Position numbers and translations under genes: made by a program | Source: a virus | DNA length: 64,000 nt | Virus record (IMG/VR): IMGVR_UViG_3300032215_000682 | Coordinates: 51,637 to 115,636 of that record | Reading direction: 5' to 3' (one strand) | The notes under the pieces: generated by a model | Database searches by the model: none | What the model was told of the DNA's origin: nothing | What the model saw: only the letters and a program-made list of their open reading frames with translations | Part shown: positions 6,007 to 40,503 of the stretch, one piece after another | Position numbering within the stretch: position 1 is the first letter of the stretch | How the letters are laid out: every line of letters begins with the position of its first letter

Positions 6007-6966
6007 TTAAAAGTGTCTTACATTCATTCTCTCATAGGAATAGTATTGATTCCTAAGCCTTCTGCTATCTTCAACAAGTTTATTAAAACTAGGTAATTTT
6101 GAAAGGAATCTTGCCTCAGCCATACTTTTAGCTGATTTTTCATTCCAATATTTTAATTTATTTTCTAAATTAACATCTTGACTATCAGACCACATAGCTT
6201 CAAAAAAGAATAATATTAAATAATCTCTAAGAGCTTGTAAGAGCACAGGATGATCTCCCACTAATGGCAACCCTGTTTTTTCATCAAAAGGCCCTGAATA
6301 ATATCTAATAAACATCATAGGGTGCTTTAAATTAGAAAAGACATAATAAGTGTTTCCTTGTTTTCTAATAGAAATATCATGTACACCACCTCCTTTAAAA
6401 TTTTTACAATGTTTATGACAAAATGTTTCTGTTAATTTATTTCCAAGTTTTAAAAGTCTTGGTGTAAAATTCCATTCATAATTAGCATTAGCCCATGAAT
6501 TTCCTTCAACATATTCTTTAATAGTCACTTTTTCTATTACATTTTCTGGAGCACAACCATTTATATAAACACCATAAGTGGGTTGATTACATATTCCTCC
6601 AGGCTGTTGTATCATTTCACAATCTTTATGTGTATAAACAACAATTTTATCTTGAAATTCTCTCCAATGAAAAGGCTTTATTTCTTTTCCATTATATGTT
6701 TCATTTTCTAATTCTCTATGATTTTCTTTACAAAGCCAAGCAGAATCTAACATCATAAAGTCACAAGGAAGTTGTCCTTTGTGATCTGTAAGTGTTATCA
6801 TAGTGTCTTTTCTTTCAAAGAGAGAAAGTCCTAAATTAGAATTAAACCAAGCTATTTGGTCATAAAATTTACCAACATCTAAAAGACCATTAGCTGAATA
6901 AGAAGCTAAATAGTCCTCTATATAGTTCATTGTGGAGTCACAACTTATTAAATTAAAATCACTCAT
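6007..6966 (-). CDS. Tail/connector structural protein
   Basis: 319 residues, between the muzzle candidate (9 bp away) and the next gene, which shares one base with it (stop/start TAATG arrangement). Mixed alpha/beta composition with many aromatic residues and a few scattered Cys; no signal peptide or membrane segment. Position among the connector and tail-end genes of a crAss-like late operon suggests a tail hub or tail tube component. I do not recognise a named domain, so the role is inference from context. Confidence 0.55.
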   Translation of the reverse strand: MSDFNLISCDSTMNYIEDYLASYSANGLLDVGKFYDQIAWFNSNLGLSLFERKDTMITLTDHKGQLPCDFMMLDSAWLCKENHRELENETYNGKEIKPFHWREFQDKIVVYTHKDCEMIQQPGGICNQPTYGVYINGCAPENVIEKVTIKEYVEGNSWANANYEWNFTPRLLKLGNKLTETFCHKHCKNFKGGGVHDISIRKQGNTYYVFSNLKHPMMFIRYYSGPFDEKTGLPLVGDHPVLLQALRDYLILFFFEAMWSDSQDVNLENKLKYWNEKSAKSMAEARFLSKLPSFNKLVEDSRRLRNQYYSYERMNVRHF

Positions 6967-7529
6967 TATATTATTTGATTAATTCTTCTTTTATAAAAAT
7001 CTTGAAATTTATAAGAATAAAAATTAGCATCAGTTTTTACTTTCTTAGCTAATTGTTGTTTTAATTGTTTTGTAGGTTCCCATCTATAAACATGTGCTTT
7101 TTTAGAAGTTGTATTCTTTCTATTAAACCACATAAATCTAAACCAATCTAAATAGTGTTCTAAATTCATATATCTTTGTGGGTGAGAATATTTTTTTAGT
7201 CTTCTTTCTTTTAAATATTCTGAAAGATTAGAATTCTTTATTTTTTCTATTGTTTCTTCTTTATTTTCTCTATGGTTAATAGGTGTATATTTAGACACCA
7301 CTAATGTTCCCATATTTTTAAAAATATTAAAACCTTCAGGATTTTCTAATAGCCATTTACCTATTTCTATATTAGAAAGCATTATCACTTGGTAAATATC
7401 TGAATTAGAAAGTTGCCTTCTATTCATCTTAAATCTCTTTCTGATTTTTTTACATAATTCATTAGAAAATACAGAAGTTTTTTCTCCATATTTTAGAATT
7501 CCTTTAGATGTTTCTATCTTTTGACTCAT
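6966..7529 (-). CDS. Small basic late protein, tail module
   Basis: 187 residues, very Lys/Arg-rich (for example KKIRKRFKMNRRQL and the C-terminal YKRRINQII), with overlaps of 1 bp downstream and 4 bp upstream, so it is translationally coupled within the tail operon. The central YMNLEHYLDWFRFMWFNRK segment is aromatic. No catalytic motif is visible. Likely a structural or assembly protein of the tail or head-tail connector; function unknown. Confidence 0.5.
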   Translation of the reverse strand: MSQKIETSKGILKYGEKTSVFSNELCKKIRKRFKMNRRQLSNSDIYQVIMLSNIEIGKWLLENPEGFNIFKNMGTLVVSKYTPINHRENKEETIEKIKNSNLSEYLKERRLKKYSHPQRYMNLEHYLDWFRFMWFNRKNTTSKKAHVYRWEPTKQLKQQLAKKVKTDANFYSYKFQDFYKRRINQII

Positions 7530-8245
7530 TCTTTTGGTTGTATTGGTTGTTTAGTTTTGATATTTGAATCAAGGTCAGGATTGGAATCTTTTACAAACTT
7601 GCCATAAACAGAAGCTAATTCTGTTATAAGTTGTTGTTTAACATTATGTAAAAGATATTCAGGACATACAAATTCATAATCTAAAGGACTATCTATACAA
7701 TCAGGCACATCACATGATTCACATTCATCTTGTATTAAACTATCTACAAGCCAAGGTTTTTTAAAATAAGCTTCTATTGTAATAGTTTCAACATCAGAAT
7801 TAGGAATATAAATATATCCATCAATAAAAAAATAATATTTCTTTCTAAAATCAACATATTGTCTATTTTGAATAGCTCTCCACTGTTTGGGAAATATAGG
7901 TTCATAATAAGTTTCTAAATTGACACTAGAGACATACTTTATTAGATTGCCATATCTTGTAGAAAATGTGCTTGGAAGCCTGTATTTAGTCCTCTGTAGC
8001 CTTTTACATACATAAGTGTCAAGAGCTTCACAACTTGTTATAGGTACATCTATAAGGTTTAAGCAATTAATAACTTTCCACCCCTCCTGTAATTTATACA
8101 CCCTTCTGGAATCATTTTCCTTTTTAATGTAGTCTGCTGCTATATCAATAGCTTTACTAATTACAAATTGTGGAGGAAGATAATCATCTACTGAAATTGC
8201 ACGAAGATCATTCCATGTCTCACTAATTAATTGTCTGTTGGTCAT
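7526..8245 (-). CDS. Head-tail connector / tail accessory protein (P22 gp4-like candidate)
   Basis: 239 residues. The N-terminus (ETWNDLRAISVDDYLPPQFVISKAIDIAADYIKKE) is helical and precedes a beta-rich middle and a C-terminal helix ending in QLITELASVYGKFVKDSNPDLD, a layout typical of gp4/gp10-like ring proteins that extend the portal. A CxxC...C cluster (ESCDVPDC) lies near residue 195. It is the first gene after a terminator and promoter, so it heads the tail-end operon. The -7 box ends only about 8 bp before this ATG, so its mRNA may be almost leaderless. Domain call is by fold pattern and position. Confidence 0.6.
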   Translation of the reverse strand: MTNRQLISETWNDLRAISVDDYLPPQFVISKAIDIAADYIKKENDSRRVYKLQEGWKVINCLNLIDVPITSCEALDTYVCKRLQRTKYRLPSTFSTRYGNLIKYVSSVNLETYYEPIFPKQWRAIQNRQYVDFRKKYYFFIDGYIYIPNSDVETITIEAYFKKPWLVDSLIQDECESCDVPDCIDSPLDYEFVCPEYLLHNVKQQLITELASVYGKFVKDSNPDLDSNIKTKQPIQPKE

Positions 8246-8252
8246 AATTGTG

Positions 8253-8304
8253 TAAATATACTAATAATTATTGAATTTTCCTAATACCTCATAAAATTAT
8301 GTGA
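8253..8304 (-). promoter_or_regulatory. Palindrome-marked late promoter, copy 1
   Basis: Read on the minus strand: imperfect palindrome TCACATAATTTTATGA (8289-8304), 3 bp, ATTAG as -33 (8281-8285), exactly 20 bp, then TATATTTA as -7 (8253-8260). The same layout and spacing occurs at 37650-37701 and 40322-40373. It drives the tail-end operon starting at 8245. Confidence 0.75.
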
Positions 8305-8321
8305 AATTAGTGAATATAAAT

Positions 8322-8350
8322 AAAAAACCCCTAGAGGATGTCTCTAAGGG
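8322..8350 (-). terminator. Rho-independent terminator after the 8364-9662 genes
   Basis: On the minus strand CCCTTAGAG and CTCTAGGGG pair around a 5-base loop (one mismatch), followed by six T. It separates the exonuclease unit from the tail-end operon and sits just upstream of promoter copy 1. Confidence 0.8.
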
Positions 8351-8363
8351 CTTGTGTTAATTG

Positions 8364-8756: not shown

Positions 8757-8893
8757 TTTATTATTTCTACTTTTCTTACATTCATTCCTTCCACATCTTT
8801 TGCTAAAATATTAGCCATTTGTGATGTATAATTGCCTAAACAATTCATTATTCTGTATGTACCATCAATACATTCTATTTTTATTTTAGTCAT
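8753..8893 (-). CDS. 46-residue hypothetical protein
   Basis: A short gene coupled on both sides: it overlaps the exonuclease stop by 8 bp and its stop overlaps the next start (ATGA). Sequence begins MTKIKIECIDGTYRIMN. The tight packing supports it as real; function unknown. Confidence 0.55.
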   Translation of the reverse strand: MTKIKIECIDGTYRIMNCLGNYTSQMANILAKDVEGMNVRKVEIIK

Positions 8894-9662
8894 TTCTGAA
8901 TTTTTTTATCTGACAATAATCTTGCAATTTCTGATATACTTTTTTAGTAATTATTACATCATTTTCACAGTAATCAATCATGTTTTTCAATGCTTCCTTA
9001 TCTTTTTTAAGAATAACATCATTCCATAATTGTAAACCACCAGTTGATACTTTTTCACCAAGTCCAAGAAATTTAGCTATATAATCAAGTTTATTGTTAT
9101 TAAAACTAAAACTATTTCTAGCCATTTTCAATGTATCAATTGTTTGAAGTTTAGCAGGAAATGGTATTCCATGATATATGCATCTTGTCCTAATAAAAGG
9201 AATGTCAAACCCATCAGAATTATGTCCTACTAGAATAACATCTTCATTTAAAAGTTTGCTAAATTCTAATAGAAGTTTAGCATCACCATCACTATTCCAA
9301 GAAAGTGTTTGCACTTTATCACTATCATCCCAAGAATAACTAAGGCATATAATCTTTTTTTCTTCTATTATATTATCATGTGAAAGGTTAATTTTACTAC
9401 CAATTCTCCATGAAGATACAATATTAAATGAAGACTCAATATCAATAAAAAGCTTTCTTTTAGGAGCTTTAACTTCTAAGACAGAATCATCATTTTTAAT
9501 TCTAATCTTTCTAAACCTATTTCTGATATATTCACTGGACAAACCTTCACCTATCTCACTTGCCACTAAGCTCCATCTAAATTGTGTGTCTTTAGTTCTC
9601 CAATCTTCAATAAATGCATAATTTTCTAATAGAAAAGCATCAACTTTTTGTTTTAAATTCAT
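8886..9662 (-). CDS. DEDDy-type 3'-5' exonuclease
   Basis: 258 residues. Residues 70-80 have LFIDIES (Exo I DxE), the middle has VGHNSDGFDIPFIRTRC (Exo II), and the C-terminus has YCENDVIITKKVY (Exo III, YxxxD), the signature of the RNase H-like DEDDy proofreading-exonuclease family. The first 55 residues resemble a small helix-turn-helix. The PolB at 49855 carries its own exonuclease domain, so this stand-alone enzyme may act in DNA processing, packaging clean-up or host DNA degradation. It has its own promoter (9693-9725) and lies in the late strand, away from the replication genes. Confidence 0.82.
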   Translation of the reverse strand: MNLKQKVDAFLLENYAFIEDWRTKDTQFRWSLVASEIGEGLSSEYIRNRFRKIRIKNDDSVLEVKAPKRKLFIDIESSFNIVSSWRIGSKINLSHDNIIEEKKIICLSYSWDDSDKVQTLSWNSDGDAKLLLEFSKLLNEDVILVGHNSDGFDIPFIRTRCIYHGIPFPAKLQTIDTLKMARNSFSFNNNKLDYIAKFLGLGEKVSTGGLQLWNDVILKKDKEALKNMIDYCENDVIITKKVYQKLQDYCQIKKFRND

Positions 9663-9692: not shown

Positions 9693-9725
9693 CAAAGATA
9701 TGAATAATAATTCACAATTCCTAAT
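9693..9725 (-). promoter_or_regulatory. Bacteroidota-type promoter for the exonuclease unit
   Basis: On the minus strand ATTAG (9721-9725), exactly 20 bp, then TATCTTTG (9693-9700), matching the Bacteroidota TAnnTTTG -7 box. Unlike the other three copies it lacks the upstream palindrome. The start codon is about 30 bp downstream. Confidence 0.65.
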
Positions 9726-29526: not shown

Positions 29527-31620
29527 TTATTTTATTCCTGTAAAAGGAGAATTATTATATTTTCTTTTATTTTCACTAAAAGGATTATTTATTTTTTGAC
29601 TTTCCATTCCTATAAATGGTGTTGTGATATGTCTTTTAGGAATATAAGTTTCACTTTTTCCAATAGAAGCTACATCAAAATTTGTTAATGGTGTTGCTAT
29701 ATCTAAGTATCTTGCTGCTGTTAAACAATGCCCAAAACCAATGATTCTATCATAGTTTCCATCATGCACACCTTTATTACTAGAAGATTTACCCTTATAT
29801 TCTATCATTTCTTCAAGAAGCATTACATCTGGAATTCTACAACATCCCATTTTTATTACTTCTTCCCCATCTTTATCATACATGTATATTTCTTCTTTGG
29901 TGTATTCCACCATAATATTCATGTAATATTTTTGATTAACTGTTGTAGCAGCAAGTCCTTTATTTCTTTTAGCAAATGTTAGAGGATTTATTTGTTTAGC
30001 AAGTTCTTGGGATTCTAATAGAAGATGATCTTTATTTTTTAAATAAAAATATTGTATAAGAGTTTTATCTTCATTCTCTGGAAGTCCTAGAGCATTATAA
30101 TATTCACATACATCTACACAAAGTCTATGAAAATCTTTCACTTCTTTACATCTTCCTGTAAAAGAACAAACAACACTATTTTGATATTCTCCAAGAGGTG
30201 TATACATTCTTTTAAAAACATATATACTTCCTAAAGAGTTTATTTTATCACTAGATTCATTTTCATTATAAGGGTCAATTCCTACAACATAAGTTCCAAA
30301 TGGTAGTCCTTCTATTGGATGCTCATATATAACTACAGGAGCTTCTTTAATATCTTTAGGGCCAACAGGAAATTTTAATATTGGTTTTAAATTAGATTCT
30401 TTATATTCTACTTTATTATTTTCATCTCTATATAATTGTACACATAAAGGTTCATAGTGTTTTTCTAATTCATTTTTATGACCTTTAATAGCATCAACAG
30501 GAAAATTGTTATTAGAATCTGAAAGGAAAACATCATCTACTGTAAGTGGGTAGTACATCTTCCACTTGTGGTACATTGCTGTATCATTAGAATTTAAAAA
30601 TGCATCAAGTTCTTTTTTTATTGTTTCTCTAGCTAATACTTTATCAGATATTTTTATAGTGGTAATCCATAATTCTGAATCTTTAGGTATTTCTAATAGA
30701 ACACTAGTGTCAAGCAGGTGTTGAGCAAGTGTTGTTATATACTTACAATCACTTCTGTATTCTCCTGATAAAAATATACCTGTCACTCTACCATCTTCTT
30801 GTACTTCAGAAATTAGATTATGAGCATCTGGATTAAAGAATAATTGTTTAGCATCAAAAGCATTTTCAACATTACCTCCTGTACCCATTAGCATTGGAAT
30901 ACAAGTCCATCCAAATTCATTAAGCATTGCTGGTTTAGAACCTATAAATGCTGAAAGAAATTCTGCCTTACCTATTTCATCCCATATATTACATTTAAGT
31001 CTTGAAACACCAGCAGCCTTTTCTGTACTTTTACCTCCTGATGTATTTCTAATCACATATTGAGAATACACATCATTATCATTATTCTTTCTTTTAACTC
31101 CAAGTAACACCCTCTCATCACTCCAATCTCTTGTAATCCTTGGTATTCTAAATGGTTTAGAACAATTTAATAGACCATAATCAAGAGAAGCTGTTAAGTT
31201 ATTAAGGTCATCTTTACTTGTTCCCATTAAAAGATTTTGACCTCCTTTAAATAATATACCAGATCTACCTGCATAAGAAGATTGTACTGTCGTCTTACTG
31301 AATTGTCTAAGGCCCATTATTCCTATACCTTTTCTTGTTCTTTCAGCTTCTAATAGAATGTCATTAAACTTTAATTCATTATCTCTAAAAGTAGGTGTAA
31401 TAGTAATGGGTACAGGTTCTCCCCAATCAGAAAGTTTAGAACCTTCTATCTTCCAATGATTAAGATGCCAATAAAGCCATCCTGACATTTGCCATCCATC
31501 AATATTAATTCCTCTCTCTACTTTTCTTCTTTCTTCATTCCAGAATTCTTTATATCCAACATCATCTGGATGCCAGGGAATTGTTTTCTCATCCATGTGG
31601 ATGAACATTTGTACATTCAT
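29527..31620 (-). CDS. terL: Terminase large subunit
   Basis: 697 residues. N-terminal ATPase with adenine/Walker A region GIMGLRQFSKTT (residues 100-111; a variant P-loop lacking the GKS form) and Walker B KCNIWDEIGKAEF (about 207-219). C-terminal RNase H-like nuclease starts at FGTYVVGIDPYNE (first catalytic Asp) near residue 440. Packages DNA into the head through the portal encoded next. It overlaps nothing and starts 1 bp after the upstream small gene stop. Confidence 0.9.
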   Translation of the reverse strand: MNVQMFIHMDEKTIPWHPDDVGYKEFWNEERRKVERGINIDGWQMSGWLYWHLNHWKIEGSKLSDWGEPVPITITPTFRDNELKFNDILLEAERTRKGIGIMGLRQFSKTTVQSSYAGRSGILFKGGQNLLMGTSKDDLNNLTASLDYGLLNCSKPFRIPRITRDWSDERVLLGVKRKNNDNDVYSQYVIRNTSGGKSTEKAAGVSRLKCNIWDEIGKAEFLSAFIGSKPAMLNEFGWTCIPMLMGTGGNVENAFDAKQLFFNPDAHNLISEVQEDGRVTGIFLSGEYRSDCKYITTLAQHLLDTSVLLEIPKDSELWITTIKISDKVLARETIKKELDAFLNSNDTAMYHKWKMYYPLTVDDVFLSDSNNNFPVDAIKGHKNELEKHYEPLCVQLYRDENNKVEYKESNLKPILKFPVGPKDIKEAPVVIYEHPIEGLPFGTYVVGIDPYNENESSDKINSLGSIYVFKRMYTPLGEYQNSVVCSFTGRCKEVKDFHRLCVDVCEYYNALGLPENEDKTLIQYFYLKNKDHLLLESQELAKQINPLTFAKRNKGLAATTVNQKYYMNIMVEYTKEEIYMYDKDGEEVIKMGCCRIPDVMLLEEMIEYKGKSSSNKGVHDGNYDRIIGFGHCLTAARYLDIATPLTNFDVASIGKSETYIPKRHITTPFIGMESQKINNPFSENKRKYNNSPFTGIK

Positions 31621-36719: not shown

Positions 36720-36992
36720 TCAAATTTCTTTCAATACCACTCTCTTCCTAATCCATGTTTTAGGTATTTTAATACATCCATCTAAATTTTTTATTCCATG
36801 TTCTTGAGGATTTATTCTAGAAGCTATTAACATGTATTCTTTAGTTTCTTTAATTAAAAATCCTGTTTGTTGAATTACCCAATCTGTTGTATCTGTCCAT
36901 TTTAATATTTCTTCTTCTGAAAGCCATGATGTATTATTACTAATAGCATCTATCCATTCTATGTATATTAAAGGAAATGTTTTATCTTTCAT
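36720..36992 (-). CDS. Hypothetical protein
   Basis: 90 residues; Trp-rich N-terminal half (YIEWIDAISNNTSWLSEEEILKWTDTTDWVIQQTGF), beta-rich C-terminus. Overlaps the upstream gene by 4 bp. Small phage protein of unknown role. Confidence 0.5.
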   Translation of the reverse strand: MKDKTFPLIYIEWIDAISNNTSWLSEEEILKWTDTTDWVIQQTGFLIKETKEYMLIASRINPQEHGIKNLDGCIKIPKTWIRKRVVLKEI

Positions 36993-37255
36993 TCTTTATT
37001 TTTAAATATTTCTAATGTATAAATAGTATCTCCACCTCCCATCATATCTTGATAATAAATAGCTGTAATAGTTTTACAATTATAACATTCATAACATCCA
37101 GTCCAAGATAAAGATGGTAAATGATTTACATAACATCCACATTTATAACAACCTTTTTTATTCTTTTTAACATCAATTGTTTCTATTAATTTAAAGTTTT
37201 TCTGTAAATCTTTATAATCAATTAGTTTACTATCTGTATATTCTTTAATAGTCAT
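36989..37255 (-). CDS. Zinc-ribbon protein, first gene of the late-strand small-gene operon
   Basis: 88 residues with KKGCYKCGCYVNHLPSLSWTGCYECYNC, two CxxC knuckles about 18 residues apart. First gene downstream of the 37.65-kb promoter, after an unusually long leader of about 390 bp. Possibly a regulator. Confidence 0.6.
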   Translation of the reverse strand: MTIKEYTDSKLIDYKDLQKNFKLIETIDVKKNKKGCYKCGCYVNHLPSLSWTGCYECYNCKTITAIYYQDMMGGGDTIYTLEIFKNKE

Positions 37256-37649
37256 TTAAAATATATTTTGTATTTTCAATTAGACATAAGAAGCCCTTAC
37301 ACATTTAAGTGCTTTTTGTTTTTAATTTAGATTTTCATACTACCAGGTGTCTTACTTATAACCACATTTGCATGTTTTCCTTTCTGTCCACTTATTGCTT
37401 CTTGCTTTTAAAAGAAGTAGGAAATCCTGTTTCTTATATCTAAACCATTTTTGTCACTATTGGAGAAAATCAATTTCAACTATATTTCTATGTCTACTCT
37501 CCCAATCCAACTTCTGAGCTACTATTTAATAGCTGATAGAAATTATTCCTAAAGTCAAAATAATTATCTGTGACTATACAAAGATAATATATGTTTTTGA
37601 CATTTGCAAGTTTTTTACAAACTTTAACATATTATTATTTTAGTGTCTG

Positions 37650-37701
37650 CAAATATAAACTATTAATTTGACATTTCCAAATGTCTCATAAAATTATGTG
37701 A
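37650..37701 (-). promoter_or_regulatory. Palindrome-marked late promoter, copy 2
   Basis: Minus strand: TCACATAATTTTATGA (37686-37701), 3 bp, ATTTG (37678-37682), exactly 20 bp, TATATTTG (37650-37657). Nearly 35 bp are shared with copy 1, including GGA after the -33. Predicted to drive the 32-37 kb operon and perhaps the packaging genes. Confidence 0.8.
37670..37685. promoter_or_regulatory. Operator-like palindrome on the -33 box
   Basis: GACATTT-CC-AAATGTC, perfect 7-bp arms, covers the -33 element of promoter copy 2. A related half-site TTTTGACATTTGC lies 70 bp downstream (about 37597-37609). A bound repressor here would block the promoter. Confidence 0.55.
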
Positions 37702-39432: not shown

Positions 39433-39647
39433 TCATTTGTTTCAAATGACATCAATTTAATAGAGAAGATTTGTTGTAGTAGTGGGTACTCATGTAATAT
39501 TGAGACTAGTCTAACCATAAACAGCAATGTGTGTAACTACAACATTTCTTCTCTTATTATTTTCTTGATTAACACATTTGAGGAGCACAGAACTCTATAC
39601 AATATGAATCACTCTGAACATTGTATTCTTAAGCAAGTGTGTTAATC
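39433..39647 (+). ncRNA. Candidate structured RNA / bidirectional terminator region
   Basis: Between converging genes. Hairpin TCATTTG-TTT-CAAATGA (39433-39449), long-range arms AGAGAAGATTTGTTGTAG (39462-39479) with CTACAACATTTCTTCTCT (39537-39554, two mismatches), and GATTAACACATTT (39567-39579) with AAGTGTGTTAATC (39635-39647, one mismatch) enclosing ATACAAT/ATTGTAT. The sequence is less AT-rich than the small ORFs nearby. Strand uncertain since inverted repeats read both ways. Confidence 0.45.
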
Positions 39648-40166
39648 TTTTATCTCACCATCCTTAGTAATATCTCTAAAGAACATACTAAGTTCACAAT
39701 TAATAGTCTTTCTTTTCCTTGCTATATAAGGATTAAGCATATAAATCTTTTGTACATAACCAGAAGGTGCACATACACAATAAGATAGAACATTCTTATT
39801 AAACAGTCTTTTGACCATTTTATAAAACTCATCAATACTCATATTAAGTTTAACTGCAAGAGTATCAGATGTATGTGGATGATTATTATTTTGTGATATA
39901 ACAGAACAATCTCCTTTTAACATATTTCCCATTTTAAATACTCTTGCTATATCTACATTAGAAAACTCTTTAGCAAGATATATCATAGCTTCAGAGCTGA
40001 ATGTTACATACTCATCTGAGTTGATAATGAATTGATTAGTTCCTTCTTTCATAGTGATAGTAATGTTATTCTTCACTTCAGAAGATAATAGTTCACCTGT
40101 TTCAATATTAACATATTGATCAGGTATTAATTTGGAATTCTTTTTAATTTTTGTAATTGTATTCAT
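39642..40166 (-). CDS. RepL-like winged-helix protein
   Basis: 174 residues, the only clear minus-strand gene in the plus-strand arm. A helix-turn-helix region (TSDTLAVKLNMSIDEFYKMVKRLFNKNVLSYCVC) is followed by a wing ending YVQKIYMLNPYIARKRKTI, the pattern of plasmid RepL-type initiators where G-x-Y-x-(I/L)-N-P-x-Y-I is conserved. Its 5' leader (40167-40320) contains two direct repeats (AGTAGTGGTTTTT, AGTAGTGATTTT). It has its own copy of the palindrome-marked promoter. Could initiate plasmid-like replication or act as a regulator; a plain repressor is the alternative. Confidence 0.6.
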   Translation of the reverse strand: MNTITKIKKNSKLIPDQYVNIETGELLSSEVKNNITITMKEGTNQFIINSDEYVTFSSEAMIYLAKEFSNVDIARVFKMGNMLKGDCSVISQNNNHPHTSDTLAVKLNMSIDEFYKMVKRLFNKNVLSYCVCAPSGYVQKIYMLNPYIARKRKTINCELSMFFRDITKDGEIKD

Positions 40167-40321
40167 ATATTTGTATTTTAAATCCTGAAAGTAGTGGTTT
40201 TTCTCTACTAATAACCTAAAAAGTAGTGATTTTCCACTAGTCTTATAATCTTTTGTAATTTATACTAGTATTAAGTTAGAGAATGATTTTAATTAGTTTC
40301 CTTCTTATTATTATTTGAATA

Positions 40322-40373
40322 CAAATATACAAAGAATATTCCAATAAAACAAATCTCTCACATAATTATGTGA
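40322..40373 (-). promoter_or_regulatory. Palindrome-marked promoter, copy 3
   Basis: Minus strand: perfect palindrome TCACATAATTATGTGA (40358-40373), 3 bp, ATTTG (40350-40354), exactly 20 bp, TATATTTG (40322-40329). Drives the RepL-like gene about 155 bp downstream. Confidence 0.75.
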
Positions 40374-40390
40374 ATTTATATAAAACTTAT

Positions 40391-40475
40391 GCCTCCATGA
40401 TGAAAAGGTAGACATGAAAGATTTAAAATCTTTTTTCCCTAAAAGGAAGTGTTGGTTCAAATCCAACTGGAGGTA
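40391..40475 (+). tRNA. tRNA-Leu (TAA)
   Basis: 85 nt, acceptor GCCTCCA/TGGAGGT (one G-U), anticodon stem AAAGA/TCTTT with loop TTTAAAA (anticodon TAA), long variable arm as expected for Leu, T-loop TTCAAAT, discriminator A. Reads UUA, a favoured codon here. CCA not encoded. Confidence 0.9.
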
Positions 40476-40503
40476 CTATTAATTAATTTAAAAACAAAAT
40501 AAC

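What the first reader, a model, noticed from the sequence alone, without database searches (positions are those of the whole stretch)
37650..37701. Three-copy promoter with a palindrome at fixed distance from -33 and -7 boxes
Minus-strand elements at 8253-8304, 37650-37701 and 40322-40373 share TCA(C)ATAATT(T/A)T(A/G)TGA, then 3 bp, ATT(A/T)G, exactly 20 bp, TATATTT(G/A). All three face minus-strand units: tail-end operon, small-gene/packaging operon, RepL-like gene. The -7 box matches the Bacteroidota TAnnTTTG consensus, but the 16-bp palindrome in front is not part of it. Constant spacing suggests an activator or phage factor that recruits host polymerase, a late or lifestyle switch for distant units.
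Basis: partly seen in the sequence, partly recalled or inferred. Interest (0 to 1): 0.85.

Follow-up and report, generated by a model that had tools for sequence, protein, structure and literature searches.

The report
Shared switch motif on phage late promoters
In a crAss-like virus of bacteria, the start sites of the capsid, tail, RNA-polymerase and replication-type gene blocks carry the same short mirror-image DNA site at one exact distance from an ordinary host promoter, which looks like the docking place of a protein that turns late virus genes on together.

Summary
Three exact 52-bp elements exist, all minus-strand and intergenic, none elsewhere in the 115,636-bp genome. I found a fourth, degenerate copy outside the window, in front of the virion-RNA-polymerase operon. 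The -33/-7 part is an ordinary Bacteroidota sigma-A promoter with an extended -33 box (TTTGGAA). A matrix built from relatives picks seven such promoters genome-wide, all intergenic. Four carry the palindrome (tail-ring, capsid/packaging, RNA-polymerase, wHTH gene). The other three lack it and have stronger cores.

Relatives lack this palindrome sequence. One distant clade of crAss-like phages has a different dyad, GTTAA-N8-TTAAC, whose centre is also 12 nt upstream of the -33 TTTG. In 19 of 22 distinct hits of a gap-tolerant collection scan the dyad-to-box gap is exactly 3 bp. In most of these phages it is shared by two back-to-back promoters, of the helicase and packaging operons.

Best reading: a class-II-like activator site (centre about -48.5) that recruits host RNA polymerase to late promoters, like phage P2 Ogr or Mu C. 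Activation, TSSs and the binding protein are inferred. The "RepL-like" wHTH protein is probably not the binder: its family has its own paired dyads.

The parts
8253..8304 (-). Element 1: dyad 8289-8304, -33 TTAG(GAA) 8281-8284, -7 TATATTTA 8253-8260; predicted start near 8248, about 3 nt before the ATG of the tail-ring gene
8325..8353 (-). Intrinsic-terminator-like hairpin closing the upstream unit just before element 1
7526..8245 (-). First gene behind element 1: CrAss_Ring_2 tail ring protein (CrAss_Ring_1-like 6007-6966 follows, just below the Pfam cut-off)
37650..37701 (-). Element 2: dyad 37686-37701, -33 TTTG(GAA) 37678-37681, -7 TATATTTG 37650-37657; start of the capsid/packaging operon (first gene 36989-37255, terminase 29527-31620)
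37579..37610 (-). Weaker second host-type promoter without palindrome, in tandem downstream of element 2 (score 13.2 with the relatives-trained matrix, within the shuffled range)
40322..40373 (-). Element 3: perfect dyad 40358-40373, -33 TTTG 40350-40353, -7 TATATTTG 40322-40329; faces the wHTH gene
40192..40239 (.). Pair of TAGTG-N6-CACTA-type dyads (40192-40207 and 40224-40239) 32 bp apart, the conserved own sites of the wHTH gene family
9693..9724 (-). Host-type promoter of the same core class without palindrome, in front of the exonuclease gene 8886-9662

Best explanation
The elements are late promoters for the host's sigma-A RNA polymerase (extended -33 TTTGGAA, 20-bp spacer after TTWG, -7 TAnnTTTG), each preceded by the operator of a dimeric activator. 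The 16-bp dyad lies at about -56 to -41, centre -48.5, 4 bp upstream of the -33 box. A protein made earlier in infection, most likely phage-encoded, binds the dyad, touches host polymerase and switches on four units together: capsid/packaging, tail ring, virion RNA polymerase and the wHTH gene. Shown: sequence, register, gene context, the core class in relatives, a different dyad at the same register in another clade. Inferred: that these start transcription, that a protein binds, that it activates.
For: Three exact elements, none elsewhere, all intergenic and facing operons; a fourth in register before the RNA-polymerase operon. A matrix trained on 78 sites of relatives picks seven sites in the genome (18.3-31.9), all intergenic, including all four palindrome sites; the best score in ten shuffles is 16.9. 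The four palindrome promoters have the four lowest of the seven core scores (1 in 35 by chance), as expected of activator-dependent promoters. A terminator sits just upstream of element 1. Dyad symmetry peaks at centre 12 nt upstream of TTTG in this phage and separately in a distant clade, 0 of 300 shuffles each. A collection scan allowing dyad-to-box gaps of 1-8 bp found 22 distinct hits; 19 have gap exactly 3 and all 19 are intergenic, mostly as divergent promoter pairs sharing one dyad. In crAss001 the middle and late genes are thought to use host polymerase (PMC8375218).
Against: No transcript or binding data. No binding protein identified: no Pfam-recognised activator among 74 early-side proteins. 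The palindrome sequence is in no relative, not even the closest, so the site itself has no phylogenetic support. The start of the late operon in phi14:2 has a host-type promoter without an evident dyad. Position alone does not exclude repression. The relatives' training sites were first found with a matrix that included this genome's own sites. The GTTAA sites belong to one clade and are not independent of each other.
Confidence: 0.55

Rival explanations
1. The dyad is a repressor operator: a phage repressor keeps late units and the wHTH gene off (early in infection or in a carrier state) and is removed later.
For: Perfect dyads next to promoters are typical of repressors, and control of a replication-type gene together with late genes would suit a carrier state. 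Another dyad in the nearest relative overlaps the -33 box, as an operator would (G002 at 111514).
Against: The site ends 4 bp upstream of the -33 box and overlaps neither box; the palindrome promoters have the weakest cores, the opposite of what a repressed strong promoter needs; no repressor-type gene was recognised.
Confidence: 0.15
2. The wHTH protein encoded at 39642-40166 is itself the dyad-binding factor and autoregulates through element 3 while controlling the late units.
For: The most perfect dyad lies at its own promoter; it is the only DNA-binding-like protein recognised on the early side; family dyads have the same 5-6-5, 16-bp geometry.
Against: The family's conserved sites are a pair of dyads 32-33 bp apart at its own gene; the window has that pair separately, with other half-sites (TAGTG). 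In the two homologue genomes searched whole, the family dyad occurs only at its own gene.
Confidence: 0.15
3. The palindrome is the site of a host transcription factor that the phage exploits.
For: The core promoter is host-type; no phage factor has been identified.
Against: Exact re-use in late units only, and a different dyad at the same register in another phage clade, suit co-evolving phage factors better. The host is unknown, so host genomes could not be searched.
Confidence: 0.1
4. The repeats are recent duplications, replication or packaging signals, or chance, without a role in transcription.
For: Elements 1 and 2 share an identical 16-mer.
Against: Spacer sequences differ while spacing is fixed; strand and position are tied to promoters and operons; chance is excluded.
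Confidence: 0.05

Closest known systems
Phage P2 late promoters with the Ogr activator
   Same: Four late operons share one dyad upstream of a host-polymerase promoter, turned on by a phage activator; in the P2-like phage Smp131 one dyad serves two divergent promoters (PMC3931495), as in the GTTAA clade here
   Different: Dyad is TGT-N12-ACA at sigma-70 promoters; Ogr is a C4 zinc-finger protein and no homologue was looked for by profile here; different phage order and host phylum
Phage Mu late promoters with transcription factor C
   Same: Activator site directly upstream of the -35 region of several late promoters of host polymerase (PMC4461284)
   Different: Sigma-70 promoters; C protein not found here; mechanism untested here
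Bacteroidota sigma-A (sigma-ABfr) promoters
   Same: TTTG at -33 and TAnnTTTG at -7 (PMC7366714; PMC9723704)
   Different: Fixed spacing and extended TTTGGAA here, plus an upstream dyad that is not part of the consensus

Membership tests
Bacteroidota sigma-A promoter | -7 box TAnnTTTG | tested here: met
   TATATTTG in elements 2 and 3, TATATTTA (one mismatch) in element 1, TATCTTTG in the fourth
Bacteroidota sigma-A promoter | -33 box TTTG at usual distance | tested here: met
   TTTG or TTAG 20 bp before the -7 box; relatives show TTTGG at the same distance
Bacteroidota sigma-A promoter | Transcription start 4-8 nt downstream | not testable with these tools
   needs dRNA-seq
Activator-dependent phage late promoters (P2 Ogr / Mu C type) | Common dyad at fixed distance upstream of several late promoters | tested here: met
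   Four sites, fixed register, three before structural or virion-polymerase operons and one before a wHTH gene
Activator-dependent phage late promoters (P2 Ogr / Mu C type) | Phage-encoded activator | tested here: inconclusive
   No Pfam-recognised activator; only a wHTH protein and small zinc-ribbon ORFs
Activator-dependent phage late promoters (P2 Ogr / Mu C type) | Loss of late transcription without the dyad or activator | not testable with these tools
   needs reporters or mutants
   No RepL hit in Pfam, PHROGs or NCBIfam; weak DnaD_N and a solved wHTH regulator 3r0a

The most novel reading that the evidence does not exclude
Crassvirales-type phages of environmental Bacteroidota use a common late-switch layout, a dimeric activator centred near -48.5 on an extended sigma-A promoter, in which the dyad sequence and its cognate protein are replaced from lineage to lineage while the register is kept; the same activator also controls synthesis of the next generation's virion RNA polymerase.
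Probability: 0.35. Interest if true: 0.75.

Novelty: new variant of a known kind. Interest (0 to 1): 0.55.

Why it matters
How crAss-like phages pass from their injected polymerase to timed middle and late transcription by the host enzyme is open; the literature searched only says that host polymerase is likely. A defined operator with an exact register, its target operons and an independent parallel clade make the late switch directly testable with a reporter and a pull-down, and give a search rule for the missing activator.

Tried and rejected
Structural-protein query found no relatives; terminase alignment A1 did. Exact element patterns in viral contigs: no hits; the looser TCACAT-N4-ATGTGA promoter pattern gave five hits without the arrangement, four in coding stretches and one in a 46%-GC contig. 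AlphaFold of the wHTH protein, alone and with two homologues, was low confidence (pLDDT 36 and 46), so no fold search was run. Rfam: only tRNAs, so no riboswitch or known leader RNA explains the 395-nt leader after element 2. Sigma-70 scan uninformative (12 sites against 13.9 in shuffles). Idea that the palindrome is a terminator stem: rejected; the terminator before element 1 is a separate hairpin. Idea that the wHTH protein must bind it: demoted after finding the family's own 32-bp-spaced dyad pair. Ogr-like zinc-finger search by pattern gave HNH-like and small zinc-ribbon ORFs, none convincing. The Nature paper on the phi14:2 virion polymerase is not held.

Full report
Setting. The window is positions 51637-115636 of a 115,636-base virus record. 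Pfam finds crAss tail-ring domains, CrAss_Ring_2 above its cut-off and CrAss_Ring_1 just below it; the terminase matches Leptolyngbya phage Lbo-JY46 (38%), csAssE-Sib and Cellulophaga phages. The layout is that of crAss-like phages: one strand carries replication and nucleotide genes (window 38.1-63.9 kb and genome 0-21.9 kb), the other carries packaging, capsid, tail and giant virion-polymerase genes. The 4378-residue protein holds DFDID at residue 3152; that this is the catalytic motif of crAss-like virion polymerases is my own knowledge.

Observation. The three elements are exactly where stated, are the only exact matches in the genome and are not expected by chance (4 matches, one of them the reverse reading of element 3, against 0.20). 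A genome scan with mismatches found a fourth member in the same register at genome 47152-47203, minus strand, in the 85-bp gap before a 545-residue gene that is followed by the 4378- and 3212-residue genes. Aligned on the -33 box, all four read TTCACATAA-----TGAG--ATT-G...TAT-TTT. Only element 3 has a perfect palindrome.

What the -33/-7 part is. Host-type promoters in Bacteroidota have TTTG near -33 and TAnnTTTG at -7 (PMC7366714); the -7 box occupies -12 to -5 in Flavobacterium psychrophilum (PMC9723704). Intergenic sites TTTGG(A/T)A(A)T-N-TCAAA...TAnnTTTG recur in most terminase-related loci, nearly always with the same distance. A matrix trained only on 78 such sites from relatives ranks seven sites of this genome at 18.3 to 31.9, all intergenic; shuffled genomes reach at most 16.9. 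One caveat: the training sites were first collected with a matrix that included sites of this genome. The seven are 12513 (+; before an endonuclease VII/HNH-like gene), 22622 (-), 61329 (-; before an exonuclease gene), and the four palindrome sites 89286, 47152, 59889 and 91958 (genome coordinates). So the palindrome is an addition carried by four of seven promoters. The three without it have the three highest scores.

Which units. Element 1 (genome 59889) starts the tail-ring unit right after a terminator-like hairpin and would give an almost leaderless message. Element 2 (89286) starts the packaging/capsid operon, with a 395-nt leader and a weaker tandem promoter at 37579. Element 3 (91958) faces the wHTH gene. 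The fourth faces the virion-polymerase operon. Palindrome-less promoters face nuclease genes and a small distal unit. The split fits coordinated late control; timing itself is inferred by analogy with crAss001, where middle and late genes are thought to depend on host polymerase (PMC8375218).

Register. Counting the -7 box as -12 to -5, the -33 TTWG starts at -36 and the dyad spans -56 to -41, centre -48.5. The palindrome sequence is absent from the closest relative (57% terminase identity, searched whole) and from other viral contigs. In a distant clade (27-32% terminase identity) another dyad, GTTAA-N8-TTAAC, has its centre at the same 12 nt upstream of the TTTG. Symmetry peaks at offset 12 in both groups, with 0 of 300 shuffles each (the clade's sites are not independent, and in it offset 18 also reached 0 of 300). 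A scan of the viral collection that allowed gaps of 1 to 8 bp between dyad and TTTGG gave 22 distinct hits; 19 have a gap of exactly 3 and all 19 are intergenic, most as two back-to-back promoters sharing one dyad. In the two loci whose genes I listed, the dyad lies between a helicase operon and the small-gene/packaging operon. This is the strongest evidence that a dyad at this place is a functional part of such promoters.

Mechanism. An activator dimer at -48.5 next to the -33 box, contacting host polymerase, explains the fixed register, the weaker cores and the use in late units. It would work like P2 Ogr (four late promoters with TGT-N12-ACA dyads; a shared dyad for divergent promoters in Smp131, PMC3931495) or Mu C (site upstream of -35, PMC4461284). 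Membership of those families is not claimed: the protein is unknown. A repressor or a host factor is not excluded.

The wHTH gene. The protein at 39642-40166 has no RepL match, a weak DnaD_N match and a profile match to the regulator 3r0a. Homologues occur in other phages. Nearly all their upstream regions hold two identical or near-identical 16-bp dyads 32-33 bp apart, with sequence differing between lineages (GTCCC-N6-GGGAC, GTACT-N6-AGTAC, TATCC-N6-GGATA, TGGTC-T6-GACCA); two near-identical loci (L138, L143) show no exact pair. The window has the pair TAGTG-N6-CACTA and TAGTG-N6-CTCTA at 40224-40239 and 40192-40207, 32 bp apart. In the two homologue genomes searched whole, the dyads occur only at this gene, with three perfect or near-perfect copies each. 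So this protein's own sites are most likely the TAGTG pair, and the factor for TCACATAATTATGTGA remains unidentified.

Verdict. Among the open-access papers searched no late-promoter operator was described for crAss-like phages. It is a new variant of a known kind.

Noticed in passing
window 40192-40239; L107, L108, L133, L136, L137, L139-L142, L144-L150 upstream of the homologous gene: A wHTH gene family of phages carries a pair of 16-bp 5-6-5 dyads 32-33 bp apart in front of its own start, with lineage-specific half-sites but constant spacing: possible autoregulation or origin iterons.
   Followed up: partly
L064 6842, L069 6835, L072 6835, L079 6839, L080 6835, L084 2459, L090 6822; L156-L176: One GTTAA-N8-TTAAC dyad is shared by two divergent TTTGG/TAnnTTTG promoters, each exactly 3 bp away, between a helicase operon and the packaging operon.
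   Followed up: yes
L007 (PP438436.1): Leptolyngbya phage Lbo-JY46, listed with a cyanobacterial host, is the nearest named phage by terminase and uses Bacteroidota-type TTTGG...TAnnTTTG promoters; the host label may be wrong.
   Followed up: no
G002 111514-111545 (L099 12014): In the nearest relative a dyad CCTTATAATTtggAATTATAAGG overlaps the -33 box of a promoter, as a repressor operator would.
   Followed up: no
window 36989-37255: The first gene of the packaging operon encodes an 88-residue protein with a CxxC...CxxC zinc-ribbon pattern and no family match; possible regulator.
   Followed up: no
window 37256-37645: A 395-nt stretch without an ORF of 50 codons lies between element 2 and the first late gene, with a second weaker promoter inside and no Rfam match.
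   Followed up: partly
window 40391-40476: tRNA-Leu on the plus strand starts 18 bp beyond the dyad of element 3, back to back with it; three more tRNAs follow on the plus strand.
   Followed up: no
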